A program made the translations under genes and the position numbers. From Microcoleus sp. bin38.metabat.b11b12b14.051 (lineage in GTDB: Bacteria > Cyanobacteriota > Cyanobacteriia > Cyanobacteriales > Microcoleaceae), in contig NZ_JAAFKD010000020.1 of the NCBI RefSeq assembly GCF_013299165.1, positions 22,576 to 86,575 of the forward strand: a stretch of DNA of 64,000 bases, in the 5' to 3' direction. Each line of letters starts with the position of its first letter. Positions within the stretch are counted from its first letter, which is position 1. The notes beneath the pieces were generated by a model. It worked only from the letters and a program-made list of their open reading frames with translations. It was not told where the DNA came from and did no database searches. Of this stretch, positions 33,118 through 57,335 are shown piece after piece.

Positions 33118-33523
33118 TTGTCAGTCTACAAACTCTCAACGCGCGATCGCCCTTTAACGCCAATGACGATGAGATATCTTGCACAAAACTCGACTGTGCG
33201 TGCGATCGATCTTTTGAGAAATTGTGCGATCGACTTGGGAAATATGGGTATAATTTATCACAAGTGAGAGCGATCCTTCAGCGATCGGGCGATCGTTTGA
33301 TACCTGCATTCAGCAACGCCGGCCGATCATCTGATTGAAGACCTGCAACAATCTGAAGAGCCTGTGTATAAAATTATTTAAAGAAAGTGCGATCGTATCT
33401 TGACAGGTATAGTCTAATACCCTAGAGTCATGATTAAACAGTGCGACTGTCAGCCCTTTATAAGTTGCGACTCAAATATGTTAACTAGGATACATATTCA
33501 CTATCAACACCAGTATTTAACAC
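33118..33523. other. Spacer upstream of the dynamin cassette
   Basis: A frame at 33099-33338 exists but it is mostly made of repeated GCGATCG-type words and shows no family, so I do not call it. Composition shifts to A+T-rich near 33360. The promoter of the dynamin cassette should lie in the last 100 nt; TTGCGA (33465) and TACATAT (33490) are possible elements, but this is weak. Confidence 0.4.
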
Positions 33524-35921
33524 ATGAGTAAACAATTATACAAAGTTTTTGACGAAGTAGAATTCAAAGCTCAACTGCTTGCTAAATACTGGAATAATTT
33601 TTATACAGAAATTTCCGAGCATTTACCAGATACATATCAGCCGGAAATGCAAGAACTCTCTATGAAGTTAGACGAGGCTTTAAGCAATCTGGTCGATCAA
33701 CTTCGTAATCCGACTCTGAACTCTGGCGACTACAGGAACCACCAGTAGCGGGAAAAGCACTTTGGTGAATTTGTTGTGTGGAGCCGAAATTGTTCCTGTA
33801 GCCGTAAGTGAAATGAGCGCAGGGGCAGTCACTATCGAATATAGCAAGGAAAAGTCTCTAATAATCCATGAAACACCAGGAGCATTGTGGGAGTGTGGAG
33901 AATGGAGAGGTATCAGAGAGGAGAAAATTTATCAGCGCTTATACGAAGCAATGATAAGTTATATCGAAAATAGAGAAAAACAACCGAATTTAGCTTGTCC
34001 ACAATCTACAATCTTTTACCCTTTCCGGCTTGTCAAAGAGTCTCAACTGGAACTACCCCAAGGAACAAGGGTAAAAATTCTTGATTTACCTGGTTTAGCC
34101 TATGTGGGCGATCGAGGTAACGCAAATGTGATTCAACAGTGCCGAGAGGCATTGTGCATAGTGACATACAATAGTGCAGAAACCGATGCACAGAAAGTAA
34201 AAAGCTTATTGCAAGAAGTTGTACAGCAGGTCAAAGATTTAGGTGGTTCCCCTGCGCGGATGCTTTTTACTCTTAATCGTATTGATGTTTTCCGAGCCGA
34301 TAGAAATTGGCCTGACACAGAAAATCGCTTTGTTGAAAATGCTATCCGCAGTATTAAAACTGAATTGACTGAACAATTAAAAGAATATACAGAAGAGATT
34401 GACAAGTTGCAAGTGGTAAAACTCAGTACCTGGCCTGCTTTACTAGCCCTTGAGATACAAAATCATGATGAAATATTCAGTGCTGAGGCGTGTAAAAAGG
34501 CAGACAACAATTTTAATGGATTAATTGATGAAGATATACTAGAAGACCTGCCACGTAACGTACAAAAATGGTCTAGACACGACCGAAACCGAGTTTCTGA
34601 ATCATTATGGAAAAAATCTTATGCAGAAGAGTTTCAGCAACACTTAAAGGAACATATTAATCAACACTTTCCACAGTTAGTAATACCGCAAGCTATAGAA
34701 CGTTTTAATGTAGCTGCTGGAAATGCTGTAGCAGAGTGGGCAGTACAAACAACCACGGCCATTCTTAGCAGTTCAGAAGAACACTACCAACAGGAATGTG
34801 AAAAAATATCACACATTAGGTCATCACTTGACCGTTTTCTTCAACTTAGCGATGCAAATTTGAGAATGCCGTTTGAAAAGATAGATGCAAAATTTAAACA
34901 AGTCATAGAAAAAAAGTCAGAAGACGATCTTGTGTTCTATTTACAAAAAACCCTGAAGGAACTTCAAGATGTTGAACCTTATAAGGAATTAGGAGAAAAA
35001 TTATACCCCCTTTATGGATGGAGTAGAGAATTAAGTAGAGGGATAAAGCAAGTTTTAGAATCAGTAGCAGAATCTTTGGAGAAGGGGCAGATACTGGTAA
35101 AAAACCCAAATTTAAAAAAAGCAGATGATTCACAGGTACAACTTCTAGAAAGCAACCTCAAACGACTAATAAACTTAGGCTACACTGGGTCTGCTGCTAG
35201 AGATGGTGAAATAAGAGAAGCAAGAACAGATGAGGATAAAAAAAATCTCGAACTACTAAATCAAGCCTTAAACGACTTGTCTAAGCATTTGAATCTGGTA
35301 ATGAAAGATATTTTAAAACAAATCTCTAATCAGGAAATAGAGAGGATGTACCAGGCCGTGGTCGAGCTTTTCAATTGTCATTTATCCCATTTAGAAAAAG
35401 GAGCAAATAAAGAAGCACCCAACATAATAATCAGGTTTCCTGATTCCCAACTGATACGAGTTAAAAAAGAACTTTCATTTAGTTTAAGTTTTGAATCTGG
35501 CTTTTCAATTACAGAAGGCAATTGGGAAGAAGAGAGTAGAATTTTTTGGCACTGGTTATGGTTGGTTCCAAAATACGAAGCACGATGTAGCGATAATGCT
35601 ACAATTCCTAGCACAGAGAATTTATTAAAAAACTGGGATAGTCAGGTAAAATTAGCTGAACCAGACCTAGTTAAACAAATTGCCAGTTGGTTGCTAGAAC
35701 AAATTGATTGTTTAAAAAAAGAGGTACATAAAAATCAAAATGATATTCTCGATCGTTATCAAGCTAGACTAGATAAAGCTCACCAAGAAATAACTTTAGA
35801 TTATGAAAAGCAAAAAAATGTTTGGCAACCTATGGAACGAAAAGCCCAAGAATTGGCAGAAGAATTTGTTGTATTAGGAAAACTCTTAAAAAATGAGGAT
35901 GAAAATTCAAGTGGCAAATGA
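33524..35921 (+). CDS. Dynamin-like GTPase A, with a one-base frameshift before the P-loop
   Basis: Two overlapping pieces form one gene. The first frame (33524-33748, 74 codons, starts MSKQLYKVFDEVEFKAQLLA) runs into NPTLN; skipping one A at about 33719-33720 gives NPTLTLATTGTTSSGKSTLV and joins the second frame (usable from 33720, to 35921). The joined product has about 798 residues. GTPase motifs in joined numbering: G1 GTTSSGKST near 71-79, G3 DLPG near 187 (KILDLPGLAYVGD), G4 NRID near 250. The rest is helical with coiled-coil regions (about 330-450 and 640-798), as in bacterial dynamin-like proteins, which remodel membranes. Without the correction, the downstream piece would start after the P-loop and be inactive. 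No GCGATCGC octamer is seen here and codons are A+T-rich, suggesting transfer. The next gene overlaps it by 29 nt. Confidence 0.85.
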
Positions 35922-36726
35922 GCATCTAGAAAGACTGTATAAAGACGTTTTTGATCAAGTGTACCCCCTGATCGTAAATCAGAAAAACGGCGTTTTATAC
36001 AAAGTAATACATATATTACTTGAGTCCGAACAATCAAAATCAAAAGCAGACGAACTATGTACTCGTTTTGGTATCAAAGATGATGCTTCGTTAGAGGATG
36101 ATCGAGATTACATTGATTTCCTAATACCTCAACCCAAGCTCTTCTTACATCCATTTAATGATAATTTATTACAGAATGTTATTAATCCAGATATGGTAAA
36201 GATTGCTTGGATTGTGATTATAGCCTGCATACTGGTGGGAGTTGCTGTGTGTATCCAATACATAAGAAAGCCTAAGCAAGAGCCAACAGGTAATGCAAGA
36301 AATCAGAAACCTGATTCTTTGCAGGTACTACCTCCTGAACCAATTACTGCTGCTTTATGTCTTGTTGTTCCAGCATCTGTAATCATTGATTTAAAAGATA
36401 AGCATCCAAATGGTTTTACAGACAACCGTCTAGAGACTTCTGACCTCAAAACGCTGATAGATAACGCCTCGTATTTTCTATGCACAGACGTTAATAAGGC
36501 TAATTCAAAAGAGCAATTTTTAGAAATAATGCCAAATGAAGACATTCCAACTAATAGTAACCGAGAAGTTTATATTATAATTCATATCAATCAGGGGCAA
36601 GAAATGATTGACAAAGAAAGCCCTTACATATTAAAAAGAAACCTACCCAACTATGGACAGCGTATTATTCAACAATACGCTTGTCTTAGAAATTTATCTG
36701 GCTTAGAAAACTTTAACCGCATTTAA
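35893..36726 (+). CDS. One-TM protein between two dynamin-like GTPases
   Basis: The 277-residue protein overlaps the end of GTPase A by 29 nt, so translation is probably coupled. Residues 1-95 are soluble and helical (HLERLYKDVFDQVYPLIVNQ; KADELCTRFGIKDDASLEDD), with some resemblance to N-terminal effector-associated helical folds. A single TM helix lies at about 101-124 (MVKIAWIVIIACILVGVAVC), then a linker and a C-terminal domain (about 145-277) containing 'EVYIIIHINQGQEMIDKESP'. I recognise no enzyme family. By position it is likely to anchor or regulate the two GTPases at a membrane. Confidence 0.8.
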   Translation: MRMKIQVANEHLERLYKDVFDQVYPLIVNQKNGVLYKVIHILLESEQSKSKADELCTRFGIKDDASLEDDRDYIDFLIPQPKLFLHPFNDNLLQNVINPDMVKIAWIVIIACILVGVAVCIQYIRKPKQEPTGNARNQKPDSLQVLPPEPITAALCLVVPASVIIDLKDKHPNGFTDNRLETSDLKTLIDNASYFLCTDVNKANSKEQFLEIMPNEDIPTNSNREVYIIIHINQGQEMIDKESPYILKRNLPNYGQRIIQQYACLRNLSGLENFNRI

Positions 36727-36737
36727 GGAACCCCAAA

Positions 36738-39050
36738 ATGGATTGGAAAACAGCTTCTTCTTACTATGAAACTCGTCTCAGTGACGCTTTAAACATCCAA
36801 AGACACGCGGTAAATTTAGCCAACTTACCTCAATCTGAAGTTCCGGCTCGATTAAAAGACGTACTTTTACAAGAAGCAGAACCAACTCGTCGCCAACTTG
36901 AAAGACTCAAAAAGCGCGAGTTTCGCATCGCTGTTGTCGGGCTAGAGAAAGCCGGGAAAAGCACCTTTATTAATGCTTGGTTGCAATGTGATTTACTTCC
37001 AGCCAAGGGAGGAAGATGCACATTTACCACAACCCAAATTTATTCAGTTGAAAACGAGTCTGAACAAAGGCTAGAAGTACAAGCGAGAACCGAAGAAGAG
37101 TTTATCAACTTACTCAAAGAACTTGAGAAAGTAGGGGCGAAAGAAGACCTAAATACTATAGGATTCAACGAAATAACTTTACAACAGGTAAGAAGAGAAG
37201 GTAATCTGACTTTTCCCTTTACTAGACTCGAAGATATTAGAGAACCACTCAAGAAGTATGTAGCAGATGAAAAGTATGCTCACGCTGTTTTAGAGGCGAG
37301 ACTTTATACTAACAAACTTGCTCAAGCTGAAGGAATTGTTTTTTATGATGTTCCCGGTTTAGATTCAGGTTTAGCAAAGCACGTTGATGAAGCACAAGCT
37401 ATGCTCTCTGACTGTGATGCGGTGATATTGGTACAGCGGTTTACTAGCCTCCGAGAAAAGGAACTAGAAATCATCAAGTTTACCGAACTTGGCGATAAAA
37501 ACGTCACGGTTGCTGATAAGCTTTTTGTCTTTTTAAGTCGCATTGATTCATTAGGTAGTGCAGAGGCGCTTAAAACACATATTGAAGAAGCATCTCAAGA
37601 CTGGTTAAAACGTGCAAACCTTCCCCCTGAACGCATTGTACATGGTTCAGCCGGAGCCTATCTAATGTTGAATGGTTTAGCAGGAGAACAGACTAAGTTA
37701 GAGATTGGGGACGCAACCCATATTCAAGCTCGATTAAAAACATTAACTGGAATTACCGATGAAGAAACTCTGAATAAAAATGGCACTGGGATTCCCGAAA
37801 TTAAGGAGAAAATATTTAACTATATCAACACTGAGCGTGTCTCTATTTTAAAGAAAAGATGCGAAGCGTCTATCAATAAAATTTTCAGCAATTCTGAACA
37901 AATTTATCTTACAGTCAGCAAAAAGTATCCAGAAAATCCTGAAGAAGCCAAGCTATTTGAAGAAAATAATCGGCGGGTTTTATTTACAGAATGGTGGAAT
38001 CGAAAATGGGAAACCATCAAAGCTGATTTACAAAAATACTATGAATATTCTATTGTCAACAAATCCTTAGACAGTTCTAATGCTAAGTCATTCACTCAAA
38101 TAGAAAAATTTAGAGAACGATATTTACAAATCGTTGACAACGAAATGCAGAAACTCAGGGAGGAAACATTTAAAAAGAAAGATACCATTTTTCTTGCTAA
38201 CTCAAATCCCGAATTTGACCGCATGAAAGCCAATTTTGCTTGGCGTGATGATTTGTACGGTGATATTAGTAAGCTTCTCTCTGCAATTGCTCATCAACTT
38301 GCTTTAGAACTTAAGGATGAAGCATTAAAATTAGTTGAATACATGACAAGTTTATTATGGGAAAGTAATCAAGTAAAACCCAGGCTCATTGAAAATTCAG
38401 AGGAATATTTTTTAGCAAAACTAGAGAATAGCTTAAGCGTATTATTTTTACGCTTTGCTCGTCCAGTTGCTGAAGCGCTGATTCGCGGCCCAGTTAATAG
38501 TGATACTCGAAATAAAATCATCAAAAGTTTAGGGGTAGATATTGAAATTATTGATAACTACTATAGTGGTGAAGAAGCTGCCTTTAAAGTTCTCAAAAAA
38601 TATGTAAAGTATGGTTCAGATTTACTATTTAATTCTGAGATTCGGCAACAAGTATTAGGAGTTACAGGAGTAGCAACACAAATTGCTGGGGTAGCAGCGC
38701 AAATAGTGGTAGATGTTTCTAAAGACATAAAATTGCCACAAGAAGCTGTAGTTTTTGAGGTAGAAAATGATATTAATGCGTTTGAAGAATACTTACGCTA
38801 TGCAATTTTTAGTGCTGCTGGTTTCGAGTCATACTGTATTCAAGAACTGAAGGGTTTAGTTGATAGTTTCCGAGACAAAGAAGGTACTTGGACTGGCGTT
38901 GCTCTCAATGAGTGGTTGCAGGAAAATCCACTTCTGTTTGCTGAAATACCTCATAATTTGAAGTCACAAGAATCGAATTTAGAAGTTAGCGAACGATTGA
39001 GGCAATTATCTATTGCTTTGAAAAGAAGTCGATCGCCGGAGGTATTGTGA
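36738..39050 (+). CDS. Dynamin-like GTPase B (770 aa)
   Basis: It starts 11 nt after the one-TM gene, with AAGGA around the previous stop codon as ribosome-binding site. GTPase motifs: G1 GLEKAGKST (68-76), a Thr-rich switch-I region (GGRCTFTTTQ), G3 DVPG near 204 (FYDVPGLDSGLAKHVDEAQ), and 'LFVFLSRIDSLG' at the G4 position. The middle and end are long helices. A hydrophobic patch near 635-655 (VLGVTGVATQIAGVAAQIVV) could be a membrane-inserting paddle. Bacterial dynamin-like proteins often act as pairs, and some confer phage resistance or membrane repair; both are only possibilities here. Intact reading frame, unlike GTPase A. Confidence 0.92.
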   Translation: MDWKTASSYYETRLSDALNIQRHAVNLANLPQSEVPARLKDVLLQEAEPTRRQLERLKKREFRIAVVGLEKAGKSTFINAWLQCDLLPAKGGRCTFTTTQIYSVENESEQRLEVQARTEEEFINLLKELEKVGAKEDLNTIGFNEITLQQVRREGNLTFPFTRLEDIREPLKKYVADEKYAHAVLEARLYTNKLAQAEGIVFYDVPGLDSGLAKHVDEAQAMLSDCDAVILVQRFTSLREKELEIIKFTELGDKNVTVADKLFVFLSRIDSLGSAEALKTHIEEASQDWLKRANLPPERIVHGSAGAYLMLNGLAGEQTKLEIGDATHIQARLKTLTGITDEETLNKNGTGIPEIKEKIFNYINTERVSILKKRCEASINKIFSNSEQIYLTVSKKYPENPEEAKLFEENNRRVLFTEWWNRKWETIKADLQKYYEYSIVNKSLDSSNAKSFTQIEKFRERYLQIVDNEMQKLREETFKKKDTIFLANSNPEFDRMKANFAWRDDLYGDISKLLSAIAHQLALELKDEALKLVEYMTSLLWESNQVKPRLIENSEEYFLAKLENSLSVLFLRFARPVAEALIRGPVNSDTRNKIIKSLGVDIEIIDNYYSGEEAAFKVLKKYVKYGSDLLFNSEIRQQVLGVTGVATQIAGVAAQIVVDVSKDIKLPQEAVVFEVENDINAFEEYLRYAIFSAAGFESYCIQELKGLVDSFRDKEGTWTGVALNEWLQENPLLFAEIPHNLKSQESNLEVSERLRQLSIALKRSRSPEVL

Positions 39051-39651
39051 GTGACTGAAAATACAGGAAAATAGACAAGATTGCAAAAGTCCTTTTAATC
39101 AAATTCTAGGACGGGCTCTCCGGCCCATTCCACAAGAAAAGATGATTTTTGTAGGATGGACATCTTGTCCGTCTTAGCTATTTTTGCAATCTTGTCTAAT
39201 TTAACATTAAGTCTATGGGTACGATCGCCCAAAACATCTTCCGCCATCATCAATCAGCTTCTAATCCGCCGCCAAAATGCCGCCCCGATCGCAAAACTCA
39301 ACCCCAACAACGTACATCTTTCGCTCGAAAGGCTATATGTTTGATCTATTTCTTTGCTTTGATAGATCGATCGCCTTTATCGCAACAATTACCAAAAAGT
39401 TGAAATTGTCACAAAAGTTTAAAATTCTCAAAGCTAGTACGATCTAATTAACAAAAATAAGTAAAAACATTGCCGGAGTAATTTATCAGTCTTGGACGCA
39501 CTCCGACAAAGAAACCGGGTTTTTTCCCAAATCTGCGAATCATAGCGCGTCTTCTCGGAAAAACCCGGTTTCTGACCACCCGTGCGTCCAGGACTATTTA
39601 TATGGATCTCGTCGTAGTCCAGAACTGTCATAATGGATTTGGTTTTACAGC
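39051..39651. other. Repeat-bearing intergenic region
   Basis: No gene is supported; frames at 39156-39344 and 39215-39403 have no recognisable domain. The stretch includes GGACGGGCTCTCCGGCCCAT (39110-39129), a TGTAGGATGGACATCTTGTC repeat (about 39151-39170) and the MITE-like element at 39488-39595. HIP1-like words reappear here after the A+T-rich dynamin cassette. Confidence 0.5.
39488..39595. mobile_element. MITE-like element, second copy of the AGTCYTGGACGCA termini
   Basis: Terminal inverted repeats AGTCTTGGACGCA (39488-39500) and TGCGTCCAGGACT (39583-39595) match those at 6334-6426 with one mismatch. The interior is different: it is an inverted pair of the GAAACCGGGTTTTTTCCC repeat. Element length 108 bp. 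A third, partial copy (GTCCTGGACGC with the same interior) begins at 40661. Confidence 0.7.
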
Positions 39652-40257
39652 TTACCACGGCAAGCCTCGCGCATCGGAAAAATCGGCATCGAGAACTGCC
39701 CCTGGATCGAATACAGCACCAGTCAAATCAGCTTTTCTAAACGACGTTACTGACAATTTTTCGATTTCTTCAACTGCGATAAAAAAGCCGATCGCAGTTA
39801 ACCCCAAAATTACCCCAGAAACTAACAATAAACCAATTCCCCTCAGATTATCCCCCCCAAACAATGTCACAATACCGTTAGCCCCGATCGCAGCAGCAGC
39901 CCCCGCCACAGCCCCAGCGACAATTCCCGCCTCGCCCCGAGTCGCAGCAATCGCTGTCGCAGCCGTCCCCGCTACCGCCACAGCCCCCGCATCCGCCCCG
40001 CCAATCAATCCAACCAAAGCCCCAGCCACTGTCACAGTCACCGCAGTTACCCCCGCCCTAGCAATCAAATTTTTTACCCGCCGGCGGCTTTGTCCGCTTC
40101 TGACACCCTGAAAATTTGCTCCCCTTAAAATCGCACCGGTGAAATTGCAGCCTCGAATGTCGCAACCGCTGAAGTTCGCCCCTGATAAGTCCAGCCCTTT
40201 AAATGAACGGTTCCGCAAGTTTTGGTTGGCAAAATTGAGATTTTGAGGTTGAATCAT
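39652..40257 (-). CDS. Pentapeptide-repeat protein with internal Gly/Ala-rich membrane hairpin
   Basis: The 201-residue protein starts with eight or nine pentapeptides (about 8-50: NLNFANQNLRNRSFKGLDLS and so on), followed by a basic RRRVKNLIARAG stretch, then a very hydrophobic Ala/Gly/Val-rich region (about 70-165) with glycine-zipper periodicity, and ends with four more pentapeptides (about 170-201: FRKADLTGAVFDPGAVLDAD). The layout suggests a membrane-embedded module inserted into a pentapeptide beta-helix. Function unknown. The long frame on the opposite strand is a shadow caused by this composition. Confidence 0.8.
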   Translation of the reverse strand: MIQPQNLNFANQNLRNRSFKGLDLSGANFSGCDIRGCNFTGAILRGANFQGVRSGQSRRRVKNLIARAGVTAVTVTVAGALVGLIGGADAGAVAVAGTAATAIAATRGEAGIVAGAVAGAAAAIGANGIVTLFGGDNLRGIGLLLVSGVILGLTAIGFFIAVEEIEKLSVTSFRKADLTGAVFDPGAVLDADFSDARGLPW

Positions 40258-40327: not shown

Positions 40328-40823
40328 TACGAACCGCGAAGACGCTAAGGACACGAAGGAAGAGGTAAGAAGGAAGATGTCATATGGAATCTTCGACAAG
40401 GGTTTGAGGAATTAAGAACATTTTAACCGTCGGGCGTGGTTGCCATAGCATAAAACAAGATATATGTCAATTATTATCGGATATTTGGTAACTTCTCAAT
40501 TTGCCTGTATGATCGATCGCGTGCTAGGAGTTAATCGGAGCGATAAATAACTGGTACTATCTTTGACATTAAGTTGAGAACAATGCAGCCCCCTCAATCC
40601 ATACTAGAACTTCAAATCTGAACGCTGTTATCAACAAACTTCTCGAAATTACCATTAACTGTCCTGGACGCCGGGGTGGTCAGAAACCGGGTTTTTTGGG
40701 AAAATACACAGGTTCCAACTCTCAGATTAAATAAAAAACCCGGTTTCTTTGGCGTTGATGTCTGCGTTCTGATTTAAAGAATTCCCGATCGGGATGTAAA
40801 ATCTACAAAACATTGCAATTATT
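40328..40823. other. Intergenic region upstream of purL
   Basis: No gene seen. It holds an inverted pair of the CAGAAACCGGGTTTTTT repeat (about 40681-40697 and 40735-40752), which begins with a truncated copy of the MITE-like terminus (GTCCTGGACGC at 40661). A PurR-type operator was not recognisable. Confidence 0.5.
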
Positions 40824-56449: not shown

Positions 56450-57335
56450 GACACCGCACGCTCCTACATTTGATACCAATTTTGAAAAATTATCCTACAG
56501 TATTCCGTAGGGTGTGTCGCTACTAAAAATCTCTGCACAAAAATGTATAATCTCATAGCGACGCACCATTCGCGCTAAGTTGTACGATCGGCAGATTCAA
56601 CAATATACTATTGCAATAATTATTACAAATGGTATGAATTGAGCAAATTTTTGTTTTGTGATGTCAATATCTCAGGGTTAGATTTTTAGTTTATCTCTTT
56701 GCTCTCTTGGCGGTGGCGGTGCGTCGCTCCTAGATTGTCGCTATTATTTGCAGATTTTTGGTAGCGACGCACCCTACTATCTTTCACCCCCGCGCCCACA
56801 TCAGAAACCGGGTTTTTGTCACAATCTTTGCTTCCCAGTTTTGAGCGATCGAAAAAACCCGGTTTCTTTCACCCCGCGCTCAAATCAGAAACCGGGTTTT
56901 TGTCACAATCTTTGCTTCCCCGTTTTGAGCGATCGAAAAAACCCGGTTTCTTTCACCCCGCGCTCAAATCAGAAACCGGGTTTTTGTCACAATCTTTGCT
57001 TCCCAGTTTTGAGCGATCGAAAAAACCCGGTTTCTTTCACCCCCGCGCACAAACCCCGTTTCTCTAGGTGCGGTGCGTCGCTCCGAGATTGTCGCTATTA
57101 TTTGCAGATTTTTGGTGGCGACGCACCCTACTATCTATCTTAGCGGTGGCGGTGCGTCGCTCCGAGATTGTCGCTATTATTTGCAGATTTTTGGTGCGAC
57201 GCACTTTAGGATTGCTATATATATGGCGGCACGGATTTCCATTATTTAATGATATGTCAAGGGCGCGAAAATGTCAAGCAAAATTGTAATTCGATCGCCC
57301 GAAATTTTGGCTCGAATTCGATATGTCGATCGCAC
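56450..57335. other. Gene-free region filled with repeats
   Basis: It contains GTGCGTCGC hairpins at 56506-56568, 56712-56775, 57069-57135 and 57147-57206 and the 84-bp tandem array at 56801-57062. Frames at 56748-57143, 56816-57067 and 57068-57289 exist only because the repeat lacks stops in them. I see no real gene. Confidence 0.8.
56801..57062. repeat. Tandem array, 3 x 84 bp, of GAAACCGGGTTTTTGTCACA units
   Basis: Units start at 56801, 56885 and 56969. Each has CAGAAACCGGGTTTTTGTCA at one end and AAAAACCCGGTTTCTTTCAC at the other, so each can fold, with TTTTGAGCGATCG in the middle. Units are almost identical, which suggests recent duplication or gene conversion. Confidence 0.95.

What the first reader, a model, noticed from the sequence alone, without database searches (positions are those of the whole stretch)
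33524..39050. Three-gene dynamin cassette: GTPase A - one-TM protein - GTPase B
Two different dynamin-like GTPases flank a one-TM protein of no known family. The TM gene overlaps GTPase A by 29 nt and lies 11 nt before GTPase B, so the three are almost certainly one operon. The block is visibly A+T-richer than the rest of the window, I find no perfect GCGATCGC in it, and it is bordered by a decayed Uma2 gene and MITE-like repeats. Paired bacterial dynamins are known to remodel membranes, and some are linked to phage resistance (known for DynA-like proteins); whether this cassette defends, repairs membranes or secretes is inference. The one-TM partner appears undescribed and is the most specific marker.
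Basis: partly seen in the sequence, partly recalled or inferred. Interest (0 to 1): 0.8.

Follow-up and report, generated by a model that had tools for sequence, protein, structure and literature searches.

The report
Movable dynamin cassette with swappable third gene
A mobile three-gene set in a cyanobacterium pairs a dynamin-like GTPase with a fast-changing partner and a third gene, and its cousins carry pore-former-like or lipase genes in the third place, which suggests a phage-defence machine that acts on membranes; in this genome the first gene is broken.

Summary
The cassette is real: GTPase A, a small middle protein M and GTPase B lie in order, tightly packed, A+T-rich. One correction: A is frameshifted at its P-loop here; relatives read it as one ~800-aa frame. 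M was found in 15 of 386 cyanobacterial genomes, always beside an A homologue, in 14 with B too. The unit moves: close relative Phorm 6 carries it at a locus that is empty in the window's genome, and the window's site is empty in three genus-mates; remnants show repeated loss. M's constant part is a ~120-aa C-terminal domain; 13 of 18 homologues have the TM helix, and M evolves fastest. Main new result: a sister A family in 16 more genomes heads cassettes of the same layout in 13; their third gene has a JukB-like head (12) or a Lipase_3 head (1) on a shared C-terminal domain. JukB is a published anti-phage pore-former (PMC13282480, passages). Best reading: a dynamin-led, membrane-acting defence operon with an exchangeable third component. 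Layout is shown; defence, division of labour and target are inferred.

The parts
33524..33748 (+). GTPase A, first frame fragment (74 aa N-terminus); its stop falls inside the P-loop codons
   Evidence: the intact A of L019 matches this fragment (E 8.9e-40) and the rest in one 799-aa ORF
33735..33758 (+). P-loop (G1) of GTPase A, readable only in the second frame, no start codon ahead of it
   Evidence: one-base frame difference from three relatives
33762..35921 (+). GTPase A, remaining open frame (719 aa from its first start codon)
35893..36726 (+). Middle protein M, 277 aa
35893..36201 (+). N-terminal region of M, predicted helical (absent from short homologues)
   Evidence: helical in a low-confidence model
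36202..36258 (+). Predicted transmembrane helix of M (aa 104-122)
   Evidence: mean hydropathy 2.8; such a helix in 13 of 18 homologues
36346..36723 (+). Conserved C-terminal domain of M, the defining marker
36738..39050 (+). GTPase B, dynamin-like, 770 aa, intact
33223..39072 (+). Unit shared (90.4% DNA identity) with Phorm 6, where it lies at another locus
33130..39652 (.). Stretch absent from the same site in genus-mate G099 (flanks contiguous there)
39152..39176 (+). Terminator-like hairpin after GTPase B
   Evidence: 9 such sites found in the region, shuffle mean 5.0; weak

Best explanation
This is one member of a family of mobile, accessory cyanobacterial operons of the form: dynamin-like GTPase A, small middle protein M, third protein. 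In the window's lineage the third protein is a second dynamin, GTPase B. In the sister lineage it is a protein with an exchangeable head (JukB-like hydrophobic head or class-3 lipase) on a shared C-terminal domain. Most likely mechanism: A senses or assembles at an infection-altered membrane, M docks it to the membrane or adapts it to the third protein, and the third protein acts on the membrane (fusing or constricting it in the B type, permeabilising it in the JukB type, hydrolysing lipid in the lipase type), stopping phage or other invading DNA. Shown: gene order, family relations, mobility, loss, fast evolution of M, identity of the third-gene heads. Inferred: defence role, division of labour, membrane target, and that B stands where the effector stands. 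In this genome the operon is probably inactive, because A cannot be read through its P-loop in one frame.
For: A-M-B order in 14 of 15 genomes with M, plus Phorm 6. By the C-terminal-domain profile M was found in 16 of 386 genomes, beside A in all 16. Patchy: 15 of 386 by single sequence. Empty sites and deletion remnants. dN/dS, worked out from the values: M 0.35-0.81, A 0.19-0.32, B 0.08-0.13 in six close pairs. Sister third gene: PADLOC JukB matched by 11 of 11 proteins scanned, best 5.9e-16; Lipase_3 at 1.2e-31 in L150, which shares the C-terminal domain at 2e-66. Canonical and sister A are related over most of their length (hhalign probability 100, E 2.4e-54, 696 columns). C-terminal domains of the two M groups: E 3.6e-5 against a best of 0.0021 in 20 column shuffles. 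One sister cassette on conjugative plasmid pTCL26-01_C between ArdA and HmaC/HmaB-like genes. JukB is reported to form pores on the phage vesicle, and Juk effectors to include phospholipases (PMC13282480, passages).
Against: No phage experiment. No defence-island context shown for canonical cassettes. GTPase B is not related to the JukB/lipase third gene, so 'third component' equates two proteins by position only. The JukB match spans about 120 of 323 model positions in L136 and L137. No JukA was matched by the proteins scanned (that the library holds a JukA model was not checked). Co-variation of the A C-terminal half with M was not significant (494 of 5000 permutations as high; the GTPase-half control correlated more). 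The place where A diverges differs between pairs (C-terminal half in window/G354; aa 81-160 and 241-400 in G235/G095). Nothing found in phage records for A or the JukB-type third gene or in viral contigs. The structure model of M was too weak to use (pLDDT 40).
Confidence: 0.55

Rival explanations
1. A dynamin pair for ordinary membrane upkeep (thylakoid remodelling, membrane repair under stress), with M as its membrane anchor.
For: Most bacterial dynamins are paired in operons, and Nostoc BDLP1 and other cyanobacterial dynamins are thought to remodel membranes (PMC6104087 passages; PMC5827413 section 7). GTPase B is under strong constraint (dN/dS 0.08-0.13).
Against: Found in few genomes (15 of 386 for M), empty sites in genus-mates, remnants and broken A genes, M evolving quickly, and sister cassettes with JukB-like or lipase third genes.
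Confidence: 0.2
2. Lysis-delaying, membrane-protecting defence like Bacillus DynA: the GTPases hold the membrane together during infection rather than attack it.
For: DynA delays lysis after phage infection (PMC8844932 abstract). The window's B has a hydrophobic stretch (aa 640-658, mean hydropathy 1.65) that could be a paddle.
Against: Does not explain pore-former-like and lipase third genes in the sister cassettes. The hydrophobic stretch is not seen in the B of L030 (highest value 0.91).
Confidence: 0.15
3. A selfish or addictive mobile unit, or a system acting between cells, whose products do not act on phages.
For: The unit moves between loci; one relative is on a conjugative plasmid; no phage link is shown.
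Against: No match longer than 11 bases between the two end regions; no recombinase gene is part of the conserved set; repeated loss argues against addiction. Secretion signals were not sought.
Confidence: 0.1

Closest known systems
LeoA / LeoBC (ETEC Leo operon; PADLOC models LeoA, LeoBC; the defence-system name Eleos is recalled)
   Same: Dynamin-like GTPases in one operon; sister A of L137 matches PADLOC LeoA at 8.2e-12; window A and B match LeoBC weakly at 1.4e-4 and 9.7e-5
   Different: Matches are partial (LeoA best stretch about 70 of 559 positions); M and the third genes match no Leo model in the scans made, apart from one weak LeoBC match (0.0054) of one third gene
Juk (JukA plus effectors such as JukB or phospholipases)
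   Same: Sister third gene has a JukB-like head, or a lipase head in one locus; diverse effectors are reported for Juk too (PMC13282480 passages)
   Different: No JukA match seen; a dynamin GTPase and M take its place; the head sits on a ~260-aa C-terminal domain outside the part matched by the JukB models; the window's own cassette has no JukB
Cyanobacterial dynamin tandem pairs (Tandem A/B, Nostoc BDLP1) and SynDLP
   Same: Two dynamin genes near each other in cyanobacteria; GTPase B finds Slr0869 (1.7e-5; SynDLP, identity recalled) and BDLP1 (0.0035) among PDB sequences
   Different: The text of the 2018 survey names KGK, HSR1, chaperone and tandem contexts, none with a protein like M or JukB/lipase genes (PMC5827413 section 7; its supplement was not seen)
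Bacillus DynA
   Same: Dynamin GTPase with a published phage phenotype (PMC8844932 abstract); B matches the DynA model at 1.1e-10, far below its cut-off (40 against 1600 bits)
   Different: DynA is one protein of two fused GTPases (PMC6104087 passages); no partner like M or a third gene is described in what I read

Membership tests
Dynamin-like GTPases | Dynamin_N GTPase domain above the curated cut-off of 27 bits | tested here: met
   GTPase B 55.1 bits; four A homologues 38.9 to 48.6 bits; the window's broken A piece alone 24.3 bits, below the cut-off
Dynamin-like GTPases | Membrane binding and GTP-driven remodelling | not testable with these tools
   -
Leo/Eleos | LeoA plus LeoBC homologues as the system's genes | tested here: inconclusive
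   Weak LeoBC matches; LeoA 8.2e-12 for one sister A and 4e-4 for the G089 A
Juk | JukA sensor gene | tested here: inconclusive
   No JukA match for window A, M, B or seven related proteins; presence of a JukA model in the library was not checked
Juk | JukB pore-forming effector | tested here: inconclusive
   No JukB match in the window's cassette; JukB-like head in 11 of 11 sister third genes scanned, over about 120 of 323 positions in the two rows read
Mobile defence cassette | Patchy, mobile, often lost | tested here: met
Mobile defence cassette | Located in defence islands | tested here: inconclusive
   Canonical flanks: 25 of 156 matched families shown, none by more than 2 of 120 proteins, no background rate; one sister cassette lies beside HmaC/HmaB-like genes
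Mobile defence cassette | Protects against phage | not testable with these tools
   -

The most novel reading that the evidence does not exclude
A dynamin-based bacterial immune platform: a conserved GTPase A plus a rapidly changing membrane adaptor M deploy interchangeable membrane effectors (a second dynamin, a JukB-type pore-former, or a lipase on a shared docking domain), so that dynamin GTPases act here as the trigger of membrane attack on phage compartments.
Probability: 0.4. Interest if true: 0.82.

Novelty: new variant of a known kind. Interest (0 to 1): 0.64.

Why it matters
Roles of bacterial dynamins in immunity are little known. A natural series in which a related GTPase-plus-adaptor core is paired with a second dynamin, a JukB-like head or a lipase head gives a direct way to ask what the GTPase senses and what the adaptor passes on. 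It also offers a marker domain (the M C-terminal domain) that the Pfam, NCBIfam and PADLOC scans made here do not name.

Tried and rejected
Scans of viral contigs with M, the M alignment, the JukB-type third gene and B found nothing, nor did phage records for A or the JukB-type third gene. The genome-contig scan with M gave one locus, Phorm 6. Plasmid records gave, for the queries tried, only a Bacillus dynamin (25% of B covered), the Nostoc plasmid and a Chlorohelix JukB-like gene.

An idea that the N-terminal region is an effector-associated or death-like domain is left as a guess: no Pfam support.

Specific co-evolution of the A C-terminal half with M was tested and not supported. Lower identity of the C-terminal half is a general property: A in 54 of 55 pairs, B in 55 of 55.

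A shared origin of GTPase B and the sister third gene was tested and not found. A common origin of the two M groups rests on profile comparison with controls and on the intermediate G089, which the canonical profile finds and the sister profile does not; the sister profile's only canonical hit is weak (E 0.012).

Whether the frameshift is a sequencing error or a mutation could not be decided. The promoter scan was at chance level. PHROGs was not used.
Full report
OBSERVATION. GTPase A, however, is not intact. The 74-aa frame from 33524 ends at 33748. The P-loop GTTSSGKS (33735-33758) is in another frame that has a stop just ahead of it and no start codon before 33762. Phorm 6, G354 and G157 differ there by a single base and read A as one frame of 799, 803 and 809 aa. 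The own genome gave no second match to A, M or B at E <= 0.001.

DISTRIBUTION. M was found in 15 of 386 cyanobacterial genomes, the window's included. All 15 have an A homologue beside it, whole or broken. Fourteen have A-M-B in that order on one strand (two of them with extra copies of A or M); G320 has no B. G133 (B) and G155 (A) are cut by contig ends, and G087 has A on two contigs. The C-terminal-domain profile adds one genome, G089, with A-M-A-M and no B. The N-terminal-domain profile hits only cassette genes. B was found in 19 of 386 genomes: 14 in cassettes and 5 only as C-terminal fragments (G245, G298, G253, G306, G103), with a further fragment in G002. Searches scored few candidates per genome (two for A and B), so counts are lower bounds.

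MOBILITY AND LOSS. Of the five genus-mates without M (G039, G099, G195, G203, G336), three show the window's site without the cassette: in G099 window positions 33129 and 39653 are adjacent, and G336 and G195 lack it too. In G039 only the right flank was found; G203, whose right-flank gene is split between contigs, was not examined further. In Phorm 6, whose aminotransferase neighbour is 94% identical to the window genome's, the same unit (33223-39072, 90.4% DNA identity) sits at another locus, and that locus is empty in the window's genome. Phorm 6 was not tested at the window's locus. The two end regions share no match longer than 11 bases. In G253 an internal deletion has removed most of the cassette from the locus where G095 has it, fusing the start of A to the last part of B. 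G002's second fragment lies at the locus of G207's cassette; G103 and G245 share one flank with G149's; G298 shares flanks with G207 but in rearranged order; G306 shares only patches. A is also broken in G320 (in-frame stop), in G133 (insertion with transposase-like ORFs, named by eye) and in one G002 copy (truncated). In the sister group it is broken in G199, G332 and G187 and truncated in G119.

MIDDLE PROTEIN. Eighteen homologues share a C-terminal domain of about 120 aa. Thirteen have a TM helix and 5 do not; the long forms have an N-terminal region. One of the 18, the second copy in G087, has a stop ahead of the ORF used. In two close pairs one partner lacks the N-terminal region and helix (window/G354; G235/G095). 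M has the lowest identity in 6 of 6 close pairs; A is below B in 5 of 6, the exception being window/Phorm 6 (A 93%, B 91%). Phorm 6 against G354 is 43/75/96% for M/A/B. dN/dS, worked out from the dN and dS, is 0.35-0.81 for M, 0.19-0.32 for A and 0.08-0.13 for B. Against G354, at the same locus, the window's A is 91-100% identical over its GTPase half and 46-71% over its C-terminal half, and synonymous divergence of A and M is raised too, which suggests replacement by recombination. The position of the divergent part is not fixed: in G235/G095 it is aa 81-160 and 241-400. A specific link between the A C-terminus and M was not supported.

SISTER CASSETTES. The A search gave 32 of 386 genomes: 16 canonical (G089 included) and 16 with a more distant A. 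Of these 16, 13 have A, a middle protein and a third gene in the same order: 12 with a JukB-headed third gene and 1 (G022) with Lipase_3. In 3 of the 13 (G199, G187, G332) A is broken. The other three are G119 (A truncated, third gene without head, no middle gene seen), G247 (A and a 70-aa third-gene remnant) and G047 (nothing similar found beside it). The sister middle proteins have the same plan, with a helix in some and a C-terminal domain of about 125 aa. The two domain profiles match at E 3.6e-5 over 67 columns, against a best of 0.0021 in 20 column-shuffled controls and 0.05-0.64 for four unrelated profile pairs. All 11 third genes scanned match PADLOC JukB; the twelfth, G332's, was assigned by its match to the A6 profile, head included, and was not scanned itself. 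The lipase protein carries a GHSLGG motif (its reading as catalytic is recalled) and shares the third gene's C-terminal ~260 aa (E 2e-66). In the unrooted tree, canonical and sister A fall on two sides of one fully supported branch; B goes with the first, JukB and lipase with the second, and G089 (no third gene) lies among the canonical rows. The lipase row and the G247 row are on long branches, so the place of the head swap is unsure. One sister cassette lies on conjugative plasmid pTCL26-01_C of Nostoc sp. TCL26-01, between ArdA and genes matching HmaC and HmaB. Cassette GC is below that of the flanks in 13 of 14 canonical loci (L025 left out; the exception, L023, has a short flank) and in 12 of 12 loci of the second group, 11 sister loci and G089.

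CONTEXT. Flanking ORFs of 120 aa or more were scanned against PADLOC at 1e-10, leaving out those over 1200 aa or at locus ends. Canonical: 120 proteins from 14 loci, 156 families matched, 25 shown, none by more than 2 proteins (Cas12f/TnpB-like, methyltransferases, Csx1, PDC-S03, mad2 among them). Second group: 105 proteins from 12 loci, 73 families, 25 shown, each by one protein (methyltransferase, HmaC, type I restriction enzyme, TnsB and TniQ). The number of proteins matched is not reported and no background was measured, so this does not decide about defence islands.

INTERPRETATION. A review (PMC13282480, passages) reports that JukB is recruited by JukA and forms pores on the phage vesicle, and that Juk effectors include phospholipases. 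Finding JukB-like and lipase heads on one C-terminal domain, behind a dynamin and M, makes a membrane-acting defence operon the best reading. The step from sister to canonical cassettes, that B takes the effector's place, rests on position and on related A and M. Rivals are listed with odds.

NOVELTY. The text of a 2018 survey of cyanobacterial dynamins describes KGK, HSR1, chaperone and tandem contexts (PMC5827413 section 7; supplement not seen), none like M or JukB. Full-text searches for dynamin with Juk (3 papers), cyanobacteria with dynamin, defence systems and phage (1), bacterial dynamin with anti-phage terms (6), conflict-system terms (4), and two wider ones listed only in part (20 of 52; 15 of 389) showed no title or abstract start describing this arrangement. 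Only open-licence PubMed Central papers are held, no preprints. Other papers seen: PMC8844932 abstract and outline; PMC6104087 passages; PMC11265339 and PMC10855318 passages; PMC4159319 (LeoA) in a listing.

Noticed in passing
window 39488-39595, 40682-40748, 56803-57035: A short inverted-repeat element (core AGAAACCGGGTTTTT) occurs 13 times in the window with up to one mismatch against 0.03 expected; three pairs stand in tandem at 56803-57035.
   Followed up: partly
L160:7962-9131 (Candidatus Chlorohelix plasmid NZ_CP128401.1): A JukB-like protein (E 7.6e-23) lies between a DruE-like 1690-aa helicase and a DpdE/DrmD-like helicase, upstream of an N-6 methylase: a JukB head in another, larger defence-like operon.
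   Followed up: no
L128:5877-12684 (G089): Tandem A-M-A-M without a third gene, with very similar A copies and unlike M N-termini, in a 2.6-Mb genome.
   Followed up: partly
L142:7583-7804 and L148:7509-7736: A 73-75-aa extra ORF lies between A and the middle gene in two sister cassettes.
   Followed up: no
L029:6376-14168 (G002): Truncated A-M followed by A-M-B: a partial duplication with two different middle proteins, one with and one without a TM helix.
   Followed up: no
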